A stretch of DNA of 64,000 nt from Gemmatimonadaceae bacterium (lineage in GTDB: Bacteria; Gemmatimonadota; Gemmatimonadetes; Gemmatimonadales; Gemmatimonadaceae), in the NCBI GenBank assembly GCA_025934775.1, contig JAICWO010000003.1:186001-250000 (forward strand), in the 5' to 3' direction. The position numbers and the translations under genes are program-made. The notes beneath the pieces are model-generated. The model saw only the letters and a program-made list of their open reading frames with translations. It ran no database searches and was not told where the DNA came from. Positions within the stretch are counted from its first letter, which is position 1. Each line of letters starts with the position of its first letter. This document shows, in pieces, positions 8,567-59,931 of this stretch.

Positions 8567-9417
8567 ACGCTCCGATTCCTCAATTCGTCGTCCAGGCGTA
8601 CGCGTTCATCGTCGGCGCGTGCTTCGGGTCGTTTCTCAACGTCTGCATCGCGCGCTGGCCGCACGACCGCTCCGTGCTCAGACCGCGCTCGCGTTGCCCG
8701 CACTGCGGCAATCAGCTCGTCTGGTTCGAGAACGTCCCGATCGTGAGCTGGCTCGCCTTGCGCGCCCGCTGTCGGTGCTGCGACGAGCCGATCTCGATGC
8801 AATATCCGCTCGTCGAGCTCACCGTGGCGGTGATCTGGCTCCTCTGCGCGCGAACGTATGGTCCGTCGTTCCTGGCGGTGCGCGTGGCGGTGTTCGCCAC
8901 GGTGCTGCTGGGCGTCGCGATCACCGACGCGAAGCACTATCTGATTCCCGACGGCTTCACCCTGTTCGGTTTGATGTTCGCGCTCGTCACGTCGGTCTGG
9001 GCGTTCTTCCGCGGCGAAACCCACGTCTTCGCGCTGCCGTACGACGCATTGGTGGGGGCATGCGCTGGGGCGGGGATGATCGCGATCGTCGGCTGGCTCG
9101 GCGAGGTGATGACGAAGCGCGAAGCGATGGGACTCGGCGATGTGACGTTGATGGCCTTCGTCGGGGCGGCACTCGGTCCGTCGCGCGCGTTGATCACGGT
9201 CTTTCTCGGCGCGACGCTCGGCGCGATCGCGTTCGCCGGCGTGGTGATTCCGGTTGCGATGCTCCGTCGTGGACAGGCGCGCGAACAGACGGAGCTCGCG
9301 CTCGGCTCGGCGCCGTTCGAAACGCCGCTCGTGCCATTCGGCGTGTTCCTTGCGCCTGCCGCGGTGCTCACGTTGTTTTGGGGTGACGTCATGCTCGCGT
9401 GGCTGACGCGGGCGTAG
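8563..9417 (+). CDS. pilD: Type IV prepilin peptidase / N-methyltransferase (A24 family)
   Basis: The 284-aa polytopic inner-membrane enzyme removes prepilin leaders. The N-terminal domain carries GACFGSFLNVCIARWP and a pair of Cys motifs (CPHCGN and CRCCDEP) typical of the bifunctional, Zn-binding methylating form. Catalytic aspartates lie in VAITDAKHYLIPD and GLGDVTLMAF. About seven to eight hydrophobic helices are visible. GTG 8563 overlaps the methyltransferase stop. Its presence implies type IV pili or a type II secretion system elsewhere in the genome. Confidence 0.94.
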   Translation: MNAPIPQFVVQAYAFIVGACFGSFLNVCIARWPHDRSVLRPRSRCPHCGNQLVWFENVPIVSWLALRARCRCCDEPISMQYPLVELTVAVIWLLCARTYGPSFLAVRVAVFATVLLGVAITDAKHYLIPDGFTLFGLMFALVTSVWAFFRGETHVFALPYDALVGACAGAGMIAIVGWLGEVMTKREAMGLGDVTLMAFVGAALGPSRALITVFLGATLGAIAFAGVVIPVAMLRRGQAREQTELALGSAPFETPLVPFGVFLAPAAVLTLFWGDVMLAWLTRA

Positions 9418-49499: not shown

Positions 49500-49573
<74 letters not shown>

Positions 49574-49639: not shown

Positions 49640-50755
49640 CTAGCCCGCCGATTGTGCCCGAATTGTGCCCTTCGCGAATGGAAGCACGCTCGGCGAGCCT
49701 TGCGCGGCACCGTGAAGCACAGCGAGCTTCGCCACGCCTTCGGAGAGATCGGCGGCTGACGTGATCGCGTAGCGGCGATACACCGCCTCGGTCTTGTGGC
49801 CCGTCAGCTTCATGGCGACGGAGCGCGACACGCCTGCACGTTCGAGATTCCGAACCGCCGACCGGCGAAGATCGTGAACGAGGCGGCCTTCGTGACCAGC
49901 GGCTTTGCAGGCGGCGTCCCACGCACGCCGATAGGACTTGATCGGTTTGCCGCCGCGATGGAAGACGTGAGCGATTATCCGGCCCTTCTTCTTCTCCATT
50001 TCGCGTGTCTCGTCGCGCTGCTGCTTGAGCAGATCGGCGAGCGGCTGCAATACGGCGAATGGGAACTCGCGACCTTCGCGATTCTTCGTCGTACCGGGCT
50101 CCAGTCGCACGACACCCGCCTCGAAGTTCACTTGCCCCCATGTCAGCCCGCGCGCCTCGCCCGCGCGCCAGCCAGTGAGGTAGAGGAAGCGAACGAACGG
50201 CCGAAGCGCGATCGGAAGATGCGACTCCACCTTCGCGAAGTCAGCAGGCTCAAAGAATCCCTTGCGCGCATTGTCCACCTTCACGCTCGGGATGTATGGC
50301 CGCTGCGCCGCCTTCCCCGCGCGCACGGCGAGCGAGAAGGCTCGCTTGAGGCACGCCAGTTCGTACGCGATCGTCGCGGGCGCGGCCTCGGCCTCTTGGC
50401 GCAGGCGGATGTACGAGGCGATCCGATCGCTCGTGATGTCTGGCACGCGCGAGAAGGCGAAGAACTCACGCAGATGCACAAGGGCCGTCTCGACGCGCTT
50501 CACCGAGCGGTGCCCGTTCAGCTTGTAGTCGTCGAGCAGCATCGTCACGATGTTCTCGAACGTCGTCTTATCGGCGTCGGGTCCGATCAGTCGCCCGGCA
50601 CCCATCTCAGCGAGTCGCCGCTTCAGCAGCTTCACCGCGTCCCCACGCTGTGTCGAATGGCTCGACTCCCGATACTTGCGTCCGCGATACGAGTACCTGA
50701 TCCAAAAGGTCTCGCCTCGCTGGTAGACGCCTCCTGTTCCTGCCGTTCGCTTCAT
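49640..50755 (-). CDS. int: Tyrosine recombinase / integrase
   Basis: The 371-aa protein has an N-terminal Arm-type region (RTAGTGGVYQRGETFWIRYS), a SAM-like core-binding domain, and the catalytic domain with Arg in TGWRAGEARGLTW, HxxR in LVHDLRRSAVRNLE and the H/Y of LTGHKTEAVYRRY. It recombines the attachment repeats. ATG overlaps the upstream HTH gene stop by 4 nt. Its last codons contain a TGTGCCC heptamer pair (49653-49670). Confidence 0.95.
   Translation of the reverse strand: MKRTAGTGGVYQRGETFWIRYSYRGRKYRESSHSTQRGDAVKLLKRRLAEMGAGRLIGPDADKTTFENIVTMLLDDYKLNGHRSVKRVETALVHLREFFAFSRVPDITSDRIASYIRLRQEAEAAPATIAYELACLKRAFSLAVRAGKAAQRPYIPSVKVDNARKGFFEPADFAKVESHLPIALRPFVRFLYLTGWRAGEARGLTWGQVNFEAGVVRLEPGTTKNREGREFPFAVLQPLADLLKQQRDETREMEKKKGRIIAHVFHRGGKPIKSYRRAWDAACKAAGHEGRLVHDLRRSAVRNLERAGVSRSVAMKLTGHKTEAVYRRYAITSAADLSEGVAKLAVLHGAAQGSPSVLPFAKGTIRAQSAG
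49653..49670 (+). promoter_or_regulatory. Paired TGTGCCC heptamer, left copy
   Basis: TGTGCCC at 49653-49659 and 49664-49670, 11 bp apart (one helical turn), within the end of int. The same pair occurs at 51370-51387 (inverted) and 59756-59773; likely arm-type sites for Int or Xis. Confidence 0.7.
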
Positions 50756-51038: not shown

Positions 51039-51365
51039 TCAGCTTCTCGGGCGATTGGCGGCCCAGCGTTCGAGGCCGCGCGCATCGAAGCGCAGTGTGC
51101 GGTGGCCGATCTTCCTCGTGAATGGCAGATCGCGGGCGTGTCGGTAGAGCCAACTCACCTTGACGCTCAGTCGCGCCGCCGCGTCGTCGATCGAGAGTAG
51201 TTCATCGCGATGCCCATCCGGCGCTGGACGTGCCGGTTCGGCCGCCGTCGTTGCAGAGCGTGCGACCACGGCGGTGAGCGCACGCGCTAGCTCACCGGCG
51301 AGCGCGGGCAGATCGCTCGTCGGCGTCTCCTGAACGAGGGCCGTCAGCGTCTCAGCGGGGCTCAT
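51039..51365 (-). CDS. xis: Excisionase-like (HTH_17/AlpA-type) DNA-binding protein
   Basis: The 108-aa protein ends in a winged-helix: LLSIDDAAARLSVKVSWLYR and ARDLPFTRKIGHRTLRFDAR then GLERWAA, the family of excisionases. ATG 51365 is chosen over an earlier GTG at 51386 because the heptamer pair 51370-51387 lies between them. Precedes the HTH-int pair on the same strand. Likely controls excision direction. Confidence 0.75.
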   Translation of the reverse strand: MSPAETLTALVQETPTSDLPALAGELARALTAVVARSATTAAEPARPAPDGHRDELLSIDDAAARLSVKVSWLYRHARDLPFTRKIGHRTLRFDARGLERWAANRPRS

Positions 51366-51369
51366 GGAC

Positions 51370-51387
51370 GGGCACAATGCGGGCACA
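51370..51387 (-). promoter_or_regulatory. Paired TGTGCCC heptamer at the xis start
   Basis: On the minus strand, TGTGCCC at 51387-51381 and 51376-51370, same 11-bp spacing as at the two ends of the element; it ends 5 bp before the xis ATG. Probable operator or arm site for coupled regulation. Confidence 0.7.
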
Positions 51388-51497: not shown

Positions 51498-52043
51498 TCA
51501 TCGCTTCGTCGCTCGCATCTTCGCGACGAGCGCCTTGAACTCGTCCTCGACCTCACCCGCCCAAGGCACAATCTCGGGCGGCAGGCGCTTCGAGAAGTTG
51601 TAAGTGTCTGGGTCAACCAGCAGGTCCTTCGCAACGTAGTGCGCGCCGCGCTTCTGCTGATCGTATCGTGAGAGATCGGTGAAGCCGAACGGCCAAAGCC
51701 GCCTCATCTCGCGAACATCGAGTCCGGCCGTGCCATGCAGCAGCGCGTGAACATGGGCGAACTTGCCTGTACCCCGATCGCGCTCGACGGCGTAGAAGTG
51801 GTTGATCCGCTGCCGCGCCGCGAACGCGAGGCGTCGAATGAAGTAGTCGTGATACAGTCTGATCAAGCGATCCGGTTCCGCGCCGCGATCGACGGTGAGT
51901 GTGACGAAGTGATGCCATTCGCGGGTGCTGATGAACATTCCGACCGCCAGCGCGTACACGGCCATCTCCATCGAGTCACCAGTTTCTTCACCGCGAACGC
52001 GCGGGCGGCGCGGCGGTCGGTTCGAGGAGTTTTCAGCAGCCAT
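51498..52043 (-). CDS. HUH-type replication/nicking protein
   Basis: The 181-aa protein has the three motifs of rolling-circle Rep proteins: HFVTLTVDRG (motif 1), KFAHVHALLHG with His-x-His metal ligands (motif 2), and GAHYVAKDLL with Tyr..Lys (motif 3). This is the minimal nicking domain without a helicase. Within an integrative element it may start rolling-circle replication after excision or nick an origin for mobilisation. Start could alternatively be an internal Met at 51971. Confidence 0.75.
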   Translation of the reverse strand: MAAENSSNRPPRRPRVRGEETGDSMEMAVYALAVGMFISTREWHHFVTLTVDRGAEPDRLIRLYHDYFIRRLAFAARQRINHFYAVERDRGTGKFAHVHALLHGTAGLDVREMRRLWPFGFTDLSRYDQQKRGAHYVAKDLLVDPDTYNFSKRLPPEIVPWAGEVEDEFKALVAKMRATKR

Positions 52044-53020: not shown

Positions 53021-53323
53021 CTACTTCCGACGAGTTCGGCCGACCGTGCGGCGTGATCGCGGAATGCGCTTGCGTTGCGCGCCCGTCGTGGGCTCGGACG
53101 AAGCGCGTTCGACTTCGACGAGCAGTTGTGCGAGAGTCAGTCTGAGCGCCTTTGCGAAGCGATCGGCGACATCGAGCGACAAGCTGGACTCACCGCGCTC
53201 GACCGACCCCTCAAAGTTCCGCGATACGCGAGCCTTATCGGCCAGCTTCTCTTGAGAGAGGCCGGCTTCGATTCGTAAACGTCGTACCGTCTCGCCGAAT
53301 GCCCGGCGCAGCGTCGTCGTCAT
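53021..53323 (-). CDS. XRE-family regulator
   Basis: The 100-aa protein has FGETVRRLRIEAGLSQEKLA, SRNFEGSVERGESSLSLDVA and DRFAKALRLTLAQLLVEVER, a standard XRE helix-turn-helix, and a basic C-terminal tail. Start at ATG 53323 (M-T-T-T-L) is chosen over the GTG at 53341. Convergent with the CI-like gene and divergent from the small-protein run starting at 53421. Confidence 0.85.
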   Translation of the reverse strand: MTTTLRRAFGETVRRLRIEAGLSQEKLADKARVSRNFEGSVERGESSLSLDVADRFAKALRLTLAQLLVEVERASSEPTTGAQRKRIPRSRRTVGRTRRK

Positions 53324-53420
53324 CGGGGCGTAAGACGCCACGCTCGACGGCCCGAGTCTACCAACTTAACTTGTCATTAGCTCCGGCGTCGTCGCCGGGG
53401 AATTGTCAACGAGGCTGTCG

Positions 53421-54898: not shown

Positions 54899-56542
54899 GT
54901 GGCCGCCAGCGCGCAACTCCTGCTGTTTCCGAGCATTGCCGCCGATGAATTGGCGACCGAGCAAGCGCTCGTGGCCTACCTTGCCGCGCTAGGAGCCGGG
55001 ACGGTTCCGTCGCTCTCGTTCGCGGAGCGGGCGCTCCTGAAGAAGGCCGCGGACCCCGAGTCGCCAATCATCAAGAACCTCCGTCGGGCCATTCGCGATG
55101 GCGAAGATCCGCTCGGCGACGCCTTTGCTCGGCTTCGCAATCCAGTGGAGCGCAGGCCGCTGGGCGCGACGTACACGCCGCTGCCGATCGTAGACGAGAT
55201 GGTGGCTTGGGCTGCGACTCACGCCTTTCCTGATCGCGTCGTTGATCCGGGAACGGGCTCGGCACGCTTCCTTCTCGCGGCCGGTCGGGCATTTCCGCAA
55301 GCGCAACTCGTCGGCCTGGAGATCGATCCGTTGGCCGCGTTGACGGCGCGCGCGAACTTGGCGGCGGCGGGCTTCGCCGGTCGGTCGCGCATTCTGCTCG
55401 GCGACTATCGGACGGAGGTGCTTGAGCGCATCAGCGGCAAGACGCTGTTCATCGGCAACCCGCCATACGTCCGGCATCACTTGATCGCGCCAGAGTGGAA
55501 AGAGTGGCTCGTCACGCAGGCGAAGGCGCGACGGTACGCCGCGAGTCAGCTCGCTGGCCTTCACGTCCACTTCTTTCTCGCTACCCTCGCGCACGCACAC
55601 GATGGTGACTATGGAGCGCTCATTACAGCGGCCGAGTGGCTCGACGTCAACTACGGCAAGCTCGTTCGCGAGCTGTTCCTGAACGAGCTTGGTGGCGAAG
55701 GCATTGTCGTCGTCGAGCCGACCGCCCGACCGTTTCCTGATGCTGCGACGACGGCCGCGATCACGACATTCGAGATCGGCAACCAGCCGTCGTCGATTCG
55801 ACTTTCGCGTGCGCCCGGCGTTGAGGACATCGGGCGTGGTCTCCAGAACGGAATGCTTGTCCGTCGTGAGCGCCTTGCGGCCGAGCGTCGTTGGAGCCCT
55901 CTCCTCCGTATGGCGCGACCCATCCCCGAAGGGTACGTCGAACTCGGCGAACTCTGTCGCGTTCACCGTGGGGCGGTGACGGGTTCAAACAAGGTGTGGA
56001 TCGCCGGTCCGCACAGCGCTGACCTTCCTAAAAGTGTCTTGTACGCGAGCATCACAAAGGCGCGCGAGCTGTTCAACGCTGGCAGTGTACTCGCGGACAC
56101 GCAGCGGTTGCGCCGAGTGATTGACCTGCCGGAAGAGCTGGATGAGTTGCCCGACTCAGAGCGCGGCAGGGTCGATCAATTCCTGAAGTGGGCGCGCACG
56201 ATGGGCGCGGACAAAGGATATGTCGCGACGCATCGGCGGGCTTGGTGGTCGGTAGGATTGCGGCAGCCGCCTCCGATCATGGCGACCTACATGGCGAGGC
56301 GTCCACCCGCGTTCGTAGAGAATCGGGCCGCCGCGCGCTACATCAACATCGCCCACGGCATCTACCCACGAGAGCCGATGAACCCAGTACAGATTGCGAG
56401 CTTGGCCTCCTACCTGATGGTCGCGAGCAAGACCGCCGAGGGACGCACATATGCTGGTGGGTTGATGAAGTTCGAGCCCCGCGAAATGGAGCGGATTCTC
56501 GTGCCCCGTCCCGAACTCCTCGCGGCCGAGGGAGCGAAGTGA
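54899..56542 (+). CDS. N6-adenine-type DNA methyltransferase (XamI-type RM partner)
   Basis: The 547-aa protein has SAM motif I VDPGTGSARFLLAAG, then the catalytic NPPY in LFIGNPPYVRHHL (about residue 184), ending in a long C-terminal region that would read the target. Gamma-type order. No helicase or nuclease motif, so a stand-alone type II methyltransferase. GTG 54899; the endonuclease gene overlaps its stop by 4 nt (GTGA). The Tyr/Asn catalytic motif indicates N6-adenine or N4-cytosine methylation. Confidence 0.9.
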   Translation: MAASAQLLLFPSIAADELATEQALVAYLAALGAGTVPSLSFAERALLKKAADPESPIIKNLRRAIRDGEDPLGDAFARLRNPVERRPLGATYTPLPIVDEMVAWAATHAFPDRVVDPGTGSARFLLAAGRAFPQAQLVGLEIDPLAALTARANLAAAGFAGRSRILLGDYRTEVLERISGKTLFIGNPPYVRHHLIAPEWKEWLVTQAKARRYAASQLAGLHVHFFLATLAHAHDGDYGALITAAEWLDVNYGKLVRELFLNELGGEGIVVVEPTARPFPDAATTAAITTFEIGNQPSSIRLSRAPGVEDIGRGLQNGMLVRRERLAAERRWSPLLRMARPIPEGYVELGELCRVHRGAVTGSNKVWIAGPHSADLPKSVLYASITKARELFNAGSVLADTQRLRRVIDLPEELDELPDSERGRVDQFLKWARTMGADKGYVATHRRAWWSVGLRQPPPIMATYMARRPPAFVENRAAARYINIAHGIYPREPMNPVQIASLASYLMVASKTAEGRTYAGGLMKFEPREMERILVPRPELLAAEGAK

Positions 56543-57510
56543 CGGCACCTCCGATACTCACGGCGGTTCAATTAGAAGCTCTGCGGCAGGAAGCGATCGC
56601 GATATTTCGAGAGGAGCGGATGCAGGAGCCGCTGGAAGATTATCTCGACGCGTTCGACGAGTATCTCGGTGTCACCGAGGAATTGCTGGAAACCAGCGTT
56701 GACCTCACGCAGTTGGAAGAGCACGCACTCACGATCCTGACGAACGAGAGCTTACTCGAAGCGTTCCGCTATCTGGCAGCGCCGCCGATCTCCGAGGCCG
56801 ATCTCAAGACCGTGGCCGATGTGAAATCGCTCGCTGCGGGACGCCTGACCGCCGATCCCGACGCGGTGCGCGAGATCGTCCGGACGGTTCTGATCGGAAT
56901 CGATCGTAAGCGCTTTCCCTGGGTTCAGGAGCATCGAGATCCGCAAGAAAACGAGCGCTACGCTGCGGCGCTTGCGACGGCTGCGCTCTTGGCGACGCAG
57001 CGTGTCGGAACGAATCGCCGGAACACAAGTAAGTCCGATCAGGAAGAGAGGGTGCAGGCGGCGCTGCTTGGTGCGGGCTTCGCGCAGGTGAACACGCGGC
57101 CGCTCTCGACGCTCGCGGACGCGCCGCAGCCCGGAGAGTTTTGTCGCGAGAGTATGCTCGGAACTCGCAAAGCGGACTTTGTGATCGGCCTGCATGATCG
57201 GCGAATCCTCGCGTTGGAATGCAAGGTGTCCAACAGCGAGCTCAATTCGATAAAGCGACTCAACAACGACGCAGCCGTGAAGGCGGGCGTGTGGCTCGAG
57301 GAGTTCGGTGCTCGAAACGTGGTCCCCGCCGCGATGCTCAGCGGGGTCTACAAGCTGCGCCACCTCGAACAAGCGCAGCAACGTGGCCTGACTCTTTTCT
57401 GGGCGCATCGCCTCGACGAGCTGGTCGCGTGGATCGCGAGCACCCGCCCAGCGGAAATGCCTCGCCGCGTCACAGAAGCGCGTCGCGTCGCCGAAGATCG
57501 CCGCCGATAA
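56539..57510 (+). CDS. XamI-like type II restriction endonuclease
   Basis: The 323-aa protein has a helical N-half and a PD-(D/E)xK core near the C-terminus: GTRKADFVIGL supplies the Asp and LALECKVSNSELNSIKRL the E-x-K. RVGTNRRNTSKSDQEERVQA precedes it and, with GEFCRESMLGTRKADF, matches what I know of XamI-family nucleases. XamI recognises GTCGAC. Coupled to the methyltransferase by a 4-nt overlap; the frame is open upstream inside that gene but the start is the GTG at 56539. Confidence 0.78.
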   Translation: MTAPPILTAVQLEALRQEAIAIFREERMQEPLEDYLDAFDEYLGVTEELLETSVDLTQLEEHALTILTNESLLEAFRYLAAPPISEADLKTVADVKSLAAGRLTADPDAVREIVRTVLIGIDRKRFPWVQEHRDPQENERYAAALATAALLATQRVGTNRRNTSKSDQEERVQAALLGAGFAQVNTRPLSTLADAPQPGEFCRESMLGTRKADFVIGLHDRRILALECKVSNSELNSIKRLNNDAAVKAGVWLEEFGARNVVPAAMLSGVYKLRHLEQAQQRGLTLFWAHRLDELVAWIASTRPAEMPRRVTEARRVAEDRRR

Positions 57511-58245: not shown

Positions 58246-59382
58246 ATGTTGTACTCAGTTCCCGCCGTGCGGGGCGTCCAGAACGGCCAGGAAGTGTTCC
58301 TGTTCCTTCTCCCCGCCAAGACGCTGAACGCGCTCCCGATCAAGGTTGAGCAGTTCGACCCCGACAAGCCGTACGACGATTCGGCCCAGGGGTATCAGCG
58401 CGCCGCAGAGAAGAACCGCGCTCGCCGCTTTGCGCGGTATCTCGAATCGCCCGACGCGATCTCTCCGACCGCACTGATGCTGAACGACCGGAACCGCGTG
58501 TCGAAGTTCGACGCGGCGAAGGGCGTGCTCACGTTCGACTCGGACAAGGGACCGATCTTCAACTACGACGGCCAGCACCGCGAGCTGGGCTACCGTTTCC
58601 GTTTGGAGAACGATCCCGGATTCTCGGAGTTCCCGATCCCTGTCGTGATGACGCGCGGCATGGACAAGCTCGCCGAGATGCTTCAGTTCCGGACGATCAA
58701 CAGCACGGCGAAGGGGGTCGCCACGGCGCTCGTGAACGCCATCCTCGCGAAGCTGCACGCGACCGAGGGCGATCAGGCGCTCGACGGTGATGTCGGGATG
58801 CAGCGCAACGTCGTCAGCTACAAGGCGACAGAGTTGCTGAACAACGATCCGGACGGCCCGTGGTATCATCTGATCGCGTTGCCAAATCAGTCTCAGTGGA
58901 CCAAGCGCGACATCCGCGAGGACCCGGCTCGTGAGCACACGCGCGTCATCAAGGCCAACTCATTCGTGGATGGTCTGCGACCGATCTACGACTACGTATC
59001 CACGCTCAGCTTGGCGGCGGGGATCGACGAGAAGGCTGAGAACATCGCGCGGATCGTCGGCGAGTTCTGGTCGGCGTTGAAGGAGATGATGCCGGAGGCG
59101 TTCGACGCGGCGAGCGACTACGCCCTGTTCCATTCCGGTGGCGTGGGTCCTATCCACCTCGTGCTTCGCGACTTGCTCGTGAAGATGCACGTCGGCCGTC
59201 GCGACTTCGTGAAGGCCGAGTTCATGGTGATGTTGGAGGGATCGGACTTGCTGAATACCGCCGAGTTCTGGCGGTCGGACAATGAGGACGGTGCGCGCAT
59301 CTACTCGGGCAAGGCGAACTGGCCCGACTTGGCGCGTCGCATCATCCGCGACGTGGACGAGGGCGCGCGCGCGGGCGCGTGA
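58246..59382 (+). CDS. Stand-alone DGQHR-domain protein (DndB-like)
   Basis: The 378-aa protein has the family signature NYDGQHRELGYRFRLEN (about residues 104-120), preceded by RFARYLESPDAISPTALML and followed by MLQFRTINSTAKGVATALV, the usual order in DGQHR proteins such as DndB, the regulator of DNA phosphorothioation operons. No other dnd genes are nearby. A good AAGGA site precedes ATG 58246. It ends the cargo; a terminator follows. In this context it is probably a defence or anti-defence protein linked with DNA-modification sensing. Confidence 0.82.
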   Translation: MLYSVPAVRGVQNGQEVFLFLLPAKTLNALPIKVEQFDPDKPYDDSAQGYQRAAEKNRARRFARYLESPDAISPTALMLNDRNRVSKFDAAKGVLTFDSDKGPIFNYDGQHRELGYRFRLENDPGFSEFPIPVVMTRGMDKLAEMLQFRTINSTAKGVATALVNAILAKLHATEGDQALDGDVGMQRNVVSYKATELLNNDPDGPWYHLIALPNQSQWTKRDIREDPAREHTRVIKANSFVDGLRPIYDYVSTLSLAAGIDEKAENIARIVGEFWSALKEMMPEAFDAASDYALFHSGGVGPIHLVLRDLLVKMHVGRRDFVKAEFMVMLEGSDLLNTAEFWRSDNEDGARIYSGKANWPDLARRIIRDVDEGARAGA

Positions 59383-59696: not shown

Positions 59697-59740
59697 GCGT
59701 GACAAGCGTGACGAGCGTGACAGTGCGTGACATGCGTGAC
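59697..59740 (+). repeat. Iteron array: five GCGTGAC heptamers
   Basis: GCGTGAC at 59697, 59706, 59715, 59725 and 59734, spaced 9, 9, 10 and 9 bp, followed by CTGTCAC. The regular one-turn-minus-one spacing resembles iterons bound by a Rep or Xis protein and sits 16 bp from the heptamer pair and 153 bp from the attachment repeat. Confidence 0.85.
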
Positions 59741-59755
59741 CTGTCACAAGTTTGC

Positions 59756-59773
59756 TGTGCCCGAACTGTGCCC
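59756..59773 (+). promoter_or_regulatory. Paired TGTGCCC heptamer, right copy
   Basis: TGTGCCC at 59756-59762 and 59767-59773 (11-bp period). The 18-bp unit differs from the left copy at 49653-49670 by one base. Confidence 0.7.
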
Positions 59774-59892
59774 GCACGCGCGTCAACCATCAACAAAACG
59801 AGGGACCGTCTCTCGACGATCCCTCGCGTAAGTAGCATTCTCACAAGACCATCGGCGATCATCGTCCATCACCGTGAAGCGCGCCGTCCGGC

Positions 59893-59931
<39 letters not shown>

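What the first reader, a model, noticed from the sequence alone, without database searches (positions are those of the whole stretch)
59697..59740. Iteron-like array of five GCGTGAC repeats near the right end
Regular 9-10 bp spacing next to the recombination sites, in an element that also encodes an HUH protein, suggests a replication or nicking origin, or a multi-site Xis-binding region.
Basis: partly seen in the sequence, partly recalled or inferred. Interest (0 to 1): 0.7.

Follow-up and report, generated by a model that had tools for sequence, protein, structure and literature searches.

The report
Phage-type iteron array beside attR
Five short repeated DNA words near one end of a bacterial mobile island look like the binding sites that many phages use to start copying their DNA, rather than part of the island's cut-and-paste sites, which lie right next to them.

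Summary
Five exact GCGTGAC copies lie at 59697-59740 (spacing 9, 9, 10, 9; differing spacers), followed by an inverted GTCAC. No comparable array arose in 300 shuffles. The array lies in noncoding DNA at the integrase-distal end of a 10.3-kb element in tRNA-Lys. The integrase arm-type sites are something else: pairs of TGTGCCC 11 bp apart at both ends, a layout shared by 7 of 10 elements tested. The array sits 15 bp beyond the distal pair. It is absent from the other nine distal ends, although one (L031) has a different short phased array. In viral contigs, variable-spacer GCGTGAC arrays recur, mostly inside or beside phage replication-initiator genes (14 of 20 sampled). Four-copy arrays are found on 31 contigs (13 distinct), against 2 and 1 for two control words. 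Best reading: a phage-type initiator-binding (origin) array, probably read by a protein supplied in trans, because the element has no such initiator and the site no AT-rich unwinding region. Binding by Xis is the main rival. Nothing ties the array to the HUH protein. All function is inferred.

The parts
59697..59740 (+). five exact GCGTGAC direct repeats, spacing 9, 9, 10, 9 bp
   Evidence: 0 of 300 shuffles reach 4 copies
59743..59747 (-). inverted GTGAC half (GTCAC on +) closing the array
   Evidence: inverted halves accompany 72 of 120 phage arrays against 28.8 expected
59756..59773 (+). distal integrase arm-type pair TGTGCCC-N4-TGTGCCC
49653..49670 (+). proximal integrase arm-type pair TGTGCCC-N4-TGTGCCC
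51370..51387 (-). third TGTGCCC pair, at the start of the xis-like gene
49531..49573 (.). attL core, inside the intact tRNA-Lys (49500-49572, minus strand)
   Evidence: 43-bp duplication, 97.7% identical; tRNA
59889..59931 (.). attR core, displaced 5' half of tRNA-Lys
59798..59827 (-). terminator-like hairpin between distal arm pair and attR core
   Evidence: DNA fold z -2.93; a similar hairpin is seen by eye in L032
49640..50755 (-). tyrosine integrase
   Evidence: PF00589 7.9e-20
51039..51386 (-). HTH_17 excisionase-like protein
   Evidence: PF12728, phrog_66, TIGR01764 below its cut-off
51498..52043 (-). HUH replication-associated protein (REP_ORF2-G2P)
   Evidence: PF23343 2.7e-7, above its curated cut-off
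54899..56542 (+). Type II methyltransferase (cargo)
   Evidence: PDLC03222 2.5e-198
56188..57510 (+). XamI-type restriction endonuclease; the ORF start is probably too far left, the domain begins further in
   Evidence: PF09572 3.6e-38, residues 172-405
58246..59382 (+). DGQHR-domain (DpdB/DndB-like) protein, last gene before the array
   Evidence: TIGR03187 8.7e-31, above cut-off

Best explanation
The array is the initiator-binding part of a phage-type replication origin carried by the element. A replication initiator would bind the GCGTGAC repeats side by side and load a helicase on the excised circle, so that the element is copied. Because the element encodes no initiator of the kinds found beside such arrays, the initiator most likely comes in trans, for instance from an infecting or resident phage, as in a phage satellite. 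Shown: the array, its place outside the integrase arm pair, and the strong link of the same word arrays with phage replication-initiator genes elsewhere. Inferred: that it is bound by an initiator, that the element replicates, and that the initiator comes from outside.
For: Viral contigs with GCGTGAC x3: the scan stopped at 120 (110 distinct with flanks); reversed word 45 (35 distinct), scan complete. Non-identical spacers in 75 of 120 against 10 of 45. Four copies at 10 bp: 31 contigs (13 distinct arrays) against 2 and 1 for two control words. ORF holding or nearest the array: 14 of 20 randomly sampled match replication-annotated PHROGs; over all 120 the top named families are replication initiation protein (24) and DnaD-like helicase loader (20); one cluster of 32 loci has the array inside the gene in 31. 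Control ORFs: no family in more than 3 of 45. Named cases: Pseudomonas phage phi1, where the stretch holding the array is annotated hypothetical protein and replication protein P; Rhizobium phage 16-3, 192 bp after p101 and about 26 kb from its attP. Tyrosine recombinase within 4 kb in 6 of 120, nearest 1181 bp. Sister elements of the same integrase family carry AAA_25 helicase (L031, L058) or terminase domains (L063; weak in L018 and L058), so the family looks satellite-like.
Against: No initiator gene beside the array or in the element; one PHROG initiator family is absent from the own genome. No AT-rich stretch: the window is at the 42nd-68th percentile, the phage arrays at a median of the 84th; no DnaA box within one mismatch. 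The array is 15 bp from the integrase arm pair, which an origin reading does not predict. Only one comparable array was found among 394 other genomes of the phylum (G140, on a phage-like contig). Sister elements have no such array.
Confidence: 0.45

Rival explanations
1. The array is the binding site of the element's own excisionase (HTH_17 protein, 51039-51386). Several Xis molecules bind head to tail, bend attR and touch integrase on the neighbouring TGTGCCC pair, favouring excision.
For: Xis-type proteins bind direct repeats one helix turn apart, five at phage 186 att (PMC7498355, introduction and passages read); a MerR-like relative is reported to bind 9-bp direct repeats (PMC11963761, passages read). 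The element has an HTH_17 Xis. The array is at the integrase-distal end, 15 bp from the arm pair. Another element of the family, L031, has TCTGCCG x3 at 10 bp near its distal arm pair, as unusual in its own element (0 of 300 random stretches) as the window's.
Against: The array lies outside the arm pair, whereas L031's lies between pair and core. It is absent from 9 of 9 other distal ends. No GTGAC or GTCAC lies in the gaps next to int, xis, HUH or the two HTH genes, so there is no sign of self-regulation. The same word arrays elsewhere sit at replication genes, rarely near integrases.
Confidence: 0.27
2. The array is the binding part of a rolling-circle origin served by the element's own HUH protein (51498-52043).
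For: HUH protein with Pfam REP_ORF2-G2P above cut-off, in front of xis and int as replication genes often are in mobile elements (recalled).
Against: The array folds no better than shuffles on either strand (z 0.97 and 2.61), so no nick hairpin is seen. No array within about 1.5 kb of three distant HUH homologues, 30-37% identical. No HUH homologue in the phage or plasmid collections or in the viral collection scan to compare with.
Confidence: 0.12
3. The array is a leftover or selectively neutral repeat, or serves an unknown protein.
For: Nothing in the element reads from it; no promoter is predicted nearby; perfect-tandem arrays of the same word occur in other genomes of the phylum.
Against: Differing spacers with an invariant 7-mer argue for binding sites rather than slippage; chance is excluded.
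Confidence: 0.16

Closest known systems
Phage replication origins with direct repeats inside or beside the initiator gene (lambda-O-like, DnaD-like; Pseudomonas phage phi1, Rhizobium phage 16-3)
   Same: same 7-mer, copies about one turn apart, differing spacers, inverted halves near by
   Different: no initiator gene and no AT-rich neighbour in the window; the array sits at an attachment site
Excisionase (RDF) binding arrays, e.g. phage 186 Apl (PMC7498355)
   Same: five direct repeats about a helix turn apart at the attachment site of an element with a wHTH-type Xis
   Different: lies outside the integrase arm pair; not shared by related attachment sites; no copy at a promoter of the element
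PLE satellite origin of Vibrio cholerae (PMC8263062, passages read)
   Same: island with integrase and a noncoding region holding repeats, tied to phage infection
   Different: PLE encodes its own RepA and has three ~30-bp repeats; here no such initiator and 7-bp repeats
Ectopic lambda origin as decoy (PMC4488673, abstract read)
   Same: an origin copy outside the phage genome
   Different: there on an experimental plasmid; here one natural copy, function untested

Membership tests
phage initiator-gene origin | three or more direct repeats about one helix turn apart | tested here: met
phage initiator-gene origin | same repeat word as in phage arrays | tested here: met
phage initiator-gene origin | initiator or replicative helicase gene at or beside the repeats | tested here: not met
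phage initiator-gene origin | AT-rich unwinding stretch near by | tested here: not met
phage initiator-gene origin | supports replication | not testable with these tools
   needs an experiment
excisionase-binding array | direct repeats one turn apart at the att site | tested here: met
excisionase-binding array | Xis-type gene in the element | tested here: met
   TIGR01764 below cut-off
excisionase-binding array | lies between arm sites and core (typical place; recalled, not tested against a survey) | tested here: not met
   array 59697-59740, arm pair 59756-59773, core 59889
excisionase-binding array | kept in related attachment sites | tested here: inconclusive
   0 of 9 others share it; the related Xis proteins found are distant, at most 58% over the HTH
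excisionase-binding array | bound by the element's Xis | not testable with these tools
   needs an experiment
integrase arm-type sites | same repeat at both ends of the element | tested here: not met
   GCGTGAC array is at one end only; TGTGCCC pairs meet this
HUH nicking origin | HUH initiator in the element | tested here: met
HUH nicking origin | hairpin with nick site at the repeats | tested here: not met

The most novel reading that the evidence does not exclude
The element carries a stand-alone copy of a phage-type origin without an initiator, so that the initiator of an infecting phage copies the island (and is diverted from the phage): origin mimicry by an integrative island that carries restriction-modification genes.
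Probability: 0.25. Interest if true: 0.75.

Novelty: new variant of a known kind. Interest (0 to 1): 0.42.

Why it matters
If the array works as a borrowed phage origin, it shows how an island without replication genes of that kind could parasitise or starve phages, and gives a 44-bp signature by which such islands can be sought. Independently, the comparison defines the arm-site layout of a widespread integrase family (7-mer pairs 11 bp apart, mostly about 115 bp from the distal core) and shows that GCGTGAC is a recurrent phage origin word; I found no report of that word in my literature searches (of which only 34 and 85 used a piece of the sequence).

Tried and rejected
Integrase arm sites: rejected for GCGTGAC, because the array is at one end only and TGTGCCC pairs fill that role. 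Simple slippage repeat: rejected by the differing spacers. Operator of a neighbouring gene: the array lies in a noncoding gap, no promoter is predicted and no GTGAC lies in the gaps beside the element's regulatory genes. Initiator-gene remnant around the array: blastp of six-frame translations found only short weak hits (best E 0.007, 19 residues, to an ORF that itself holds an array). Same array with the DGQHR gene: no homologue in 297 other genomes or in the viral scan. HUH relatives: none in plasmids, phages or the viral scan. Searching the noncoding stretch in 179 genomes gave only short matches; two of them (G110, G005) are arm pairs without the array.

15 of the 31 four-copy contigs were among them, so roughly half the collection may have been seen. 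The 20 sampled ORFs are the first 20 of 30 drawn at random; the third batch of 10 was not scanned. Several contigs are near-identical copies: 31 four-copy contigs hold 13 distinct arrays. In one search three of ten elements (L018, L058, L052a) showed no common pair; L052a and L055 have GGTGACAG-type pairs by eye only. The ten elements are those among the fetched loci whose second core I could place. ORFs in my scripts are mechanical and some are wrong frames.

Full report
The array is real. Five exact GCGTGAC copies lie at 59697-59740, starting 9, 9, 10 and 9 bp apart, with spacers AA, GA, AGT and AT, and are followed by an inverted half GTCAC at 59743-59747. In 300 dinucleotide shuffles of the 64-kb window no 7-mer reached four copies at 8-12 bp spacing. 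An invariant word with differing spacers suggests binding sites rather than slippage.

The setting is a 10.3-kb integrative element. A 43-bp stretch of tRNA-Lys is duplicated at 49531-49573 and 59889-59931 (97.7%); the intact tRNA is at 49500-49572. The element holds a tyrosine integrase, an HTH_3 protein, an HTH_17 excisionase-like protein, a HUH REP_ORF2-G2P protein, further HTH proteins, a Type II methyltransferase, a XamI-type restriction enzyme and a DGQHR protein. The array lies in the noncoding stretch after the last gene, close to attR.

The integrase arm sites are a different repeat. All six TGTGCCC words of the window lie in three pairs 11 bp apart: at 49653-49670, at 59756-59773 and at the start of the xis-like gene, 51370-51387. 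I tested ten elements whose duplicated core could be located. Seven (window, L032, L023, L028, L031, L034, L063) have a pair of identical 7-mers 11 bp apart at both ends in the same orientation, 114-131 bp inside the distal core; the words differ between elements (GGGCACA, GGGCAAA, ACCGGAC and so on). L018, L058 and L052a showed no common pair by this script. The GCGTGAC array is at one end only and lies 15 bp beyond the distal pair. That these pairs are bound by integrase is inferred from their layout.

The array is not part of the shared attachment site. None of the nine other distal ends has it, and a scan of the window plus 49 integrase-relative loci (744 kb) for four or more phased 6-mers found it only in the window, with unrelated arrays in L017, L025 and L055. 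An isolated arm pair in another genome of the genus (L261) has no array upstream. One result points the other way: L031 has TCTGCCG three times at 10 bp between core and arm pair, as exceptional in its own element as the window's array (0 of 300 random stretches each). So members of this family may use phased repeats near the distal arm for excision, although there on the other side of the pair.

The same word arrays are common in phages. A scan of viral contigs for three GCGTGAC copies stopped at 120 contigs (110 distinct), while the reversed word gave 45 (35 distinct) in a complete scan. Non-identical spacers occur in 75 of 120 against 10 of 45. Four copies at exactly 10 bp occur on 31 contigs (13 distinct arrays) against 2 and 1 for two control words. 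Inverted GTCAC halves lie near 72 of the 120 arrays, against 28.8 expected from random stretches, as in the window.

Where they sit is telling. Of 20 randomly drawn ORFs that hold or lie nearest to such an array, 14 match replication-annotated PHROGs: initiators, O-like proteins, DnaD-like loaders, one primase. Over all 120, 24 match one replication-initiation family and 20 a DnaD-like loader family; the largest BLAST cluster covers 32 loci with the array inside the gene in 31, and a DnaB-like helicase cluster occurs at 24 loci (the helicase name is my reading of its sequence). Control ORFs are mixed: no family matches more than 3 of 45. In Rhizobium phage 16-3 the array lies 192 bp after p101, annotated as similar to a RecA-family ATPase-like protein, and about 26 kb from the annotated attP and xis. 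In Pseudomonas phage phi1 and relatives the ORF that holds an identical array overlaps or adjoins genes annotated as replication protein P or primase/helicase in four of seven records. Only 6 of 120 loci have a tyrosine recombinase within 4 kb, the nearest 1181 bp away. In the own phylum 11 of 395 genomes had three copies, mostly perfect tandem repeats; one other (G140) has a comparable array with an inverted half on a contig with RecE-like exonuclease and terminase genes.

Hence the best reading is an initiator-binding array of phage-origin type. Three features of a self-contained origin are missing: an initiator gene at the array, an AT-rich neighbour (42nd-68th percentile against a median of the 84th in phage arrays) and DnaA boxes. 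The own genome lacks the commonest named initiator family of this set. The initiator would therefore have to come in trans. That fits a satellite-like way of life, for which the sister elements give some support: AAA_25 helicase genes in L031 and L058, a DUF3631 gene in L018, a full terminase large subunit in L063 and weak terminase matches in L018 and L058 (ten chosen ORFs from seven elements). The HUH protein is an alternative initiator, but nothing links it to the array.

The main rival is Xis binding. Excisionases bind direct repeats one helix turn apart, five of them at the attachment site of phage 186 (PMC7498355, introduction and passages read), and the array sits beside the distal arm pair. 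Against it stand the position outside the pair, the absence from relatives (whose Xis proteins are distant), and the lack of GTGAC sites in the gaps beside the element's regulatory genes. I put the origin reading at 0.45, Xis at 0.27, the HUH origin at 0.12 and the rest at 0.16. No function has been shown.

Literature: searches for iteron, origin and satellite terms and for pieces of the word itself found no report of GCGTGAC iterons or of a phage satellite borrowing its helper's origin by iteron mimicry; only the open-licence library was searched and only listings were read for most hits. Ectopic lambda origins block lambda (PMC4488673, abstract), PLE satellites carry their own RepA and origin (PMC8263062, passages), PICMI satellites encode their own replication protein (PMC10803314, passages), and a betasatellite of plant viruses is reported in a title to be copied through iteron resemblance (PMC10745424, title and start of abstract in the search listing only).

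Noticed in passing
window 51370-51387: A third integrase-type arm pair lies at the start of the xis-like gene, suggesting that integrase may control xis; L034 has an extra pair at 9346, about 240 bp before int.
   Followed up: partly
window 49500-49573 and 59889-59931: The element duplicates the 5' half of tRNA-Lys, so the intact tRNA gene now has element DNA (the int 3' end) upstream and must take its promoter from it; L032 has the same arrangement.
   Followed up: no
window 59798-59827: A terminator-like hairpin between arm pair and core, with a similar one in L032 by eye, could stop transcripts from the truncated tRNA copy running into the element.
   Followed up: partly
L031 1343-1369 approximately: TCTGCCG three times at 10 bp between core and distal arm pair: a candidate excisionase array of another family member.
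   Followed up: partly
L018, L031, L058, L063: Elements with the same integrase family carry AAA_25 or primase-like genes and terminase domains, like phage satellites.
   Followed up: partly
window 58246-59382: DGQHR (DpdB/DndB-like) protein beside a XamI-type restriction-modification pair; no homologue in 297 other genomes of the phylum.
   Followed up: partly
window 53021-53341: HTH protein resembling restriction-modification control proteins (PADLOC Control_protein, 6.6e-15).
   Followed up: no
L017 2732-2847: Ten copies of an 11-bp tandem repeat directly after the tRNA-Met next to the integrase.
   Followed up: no
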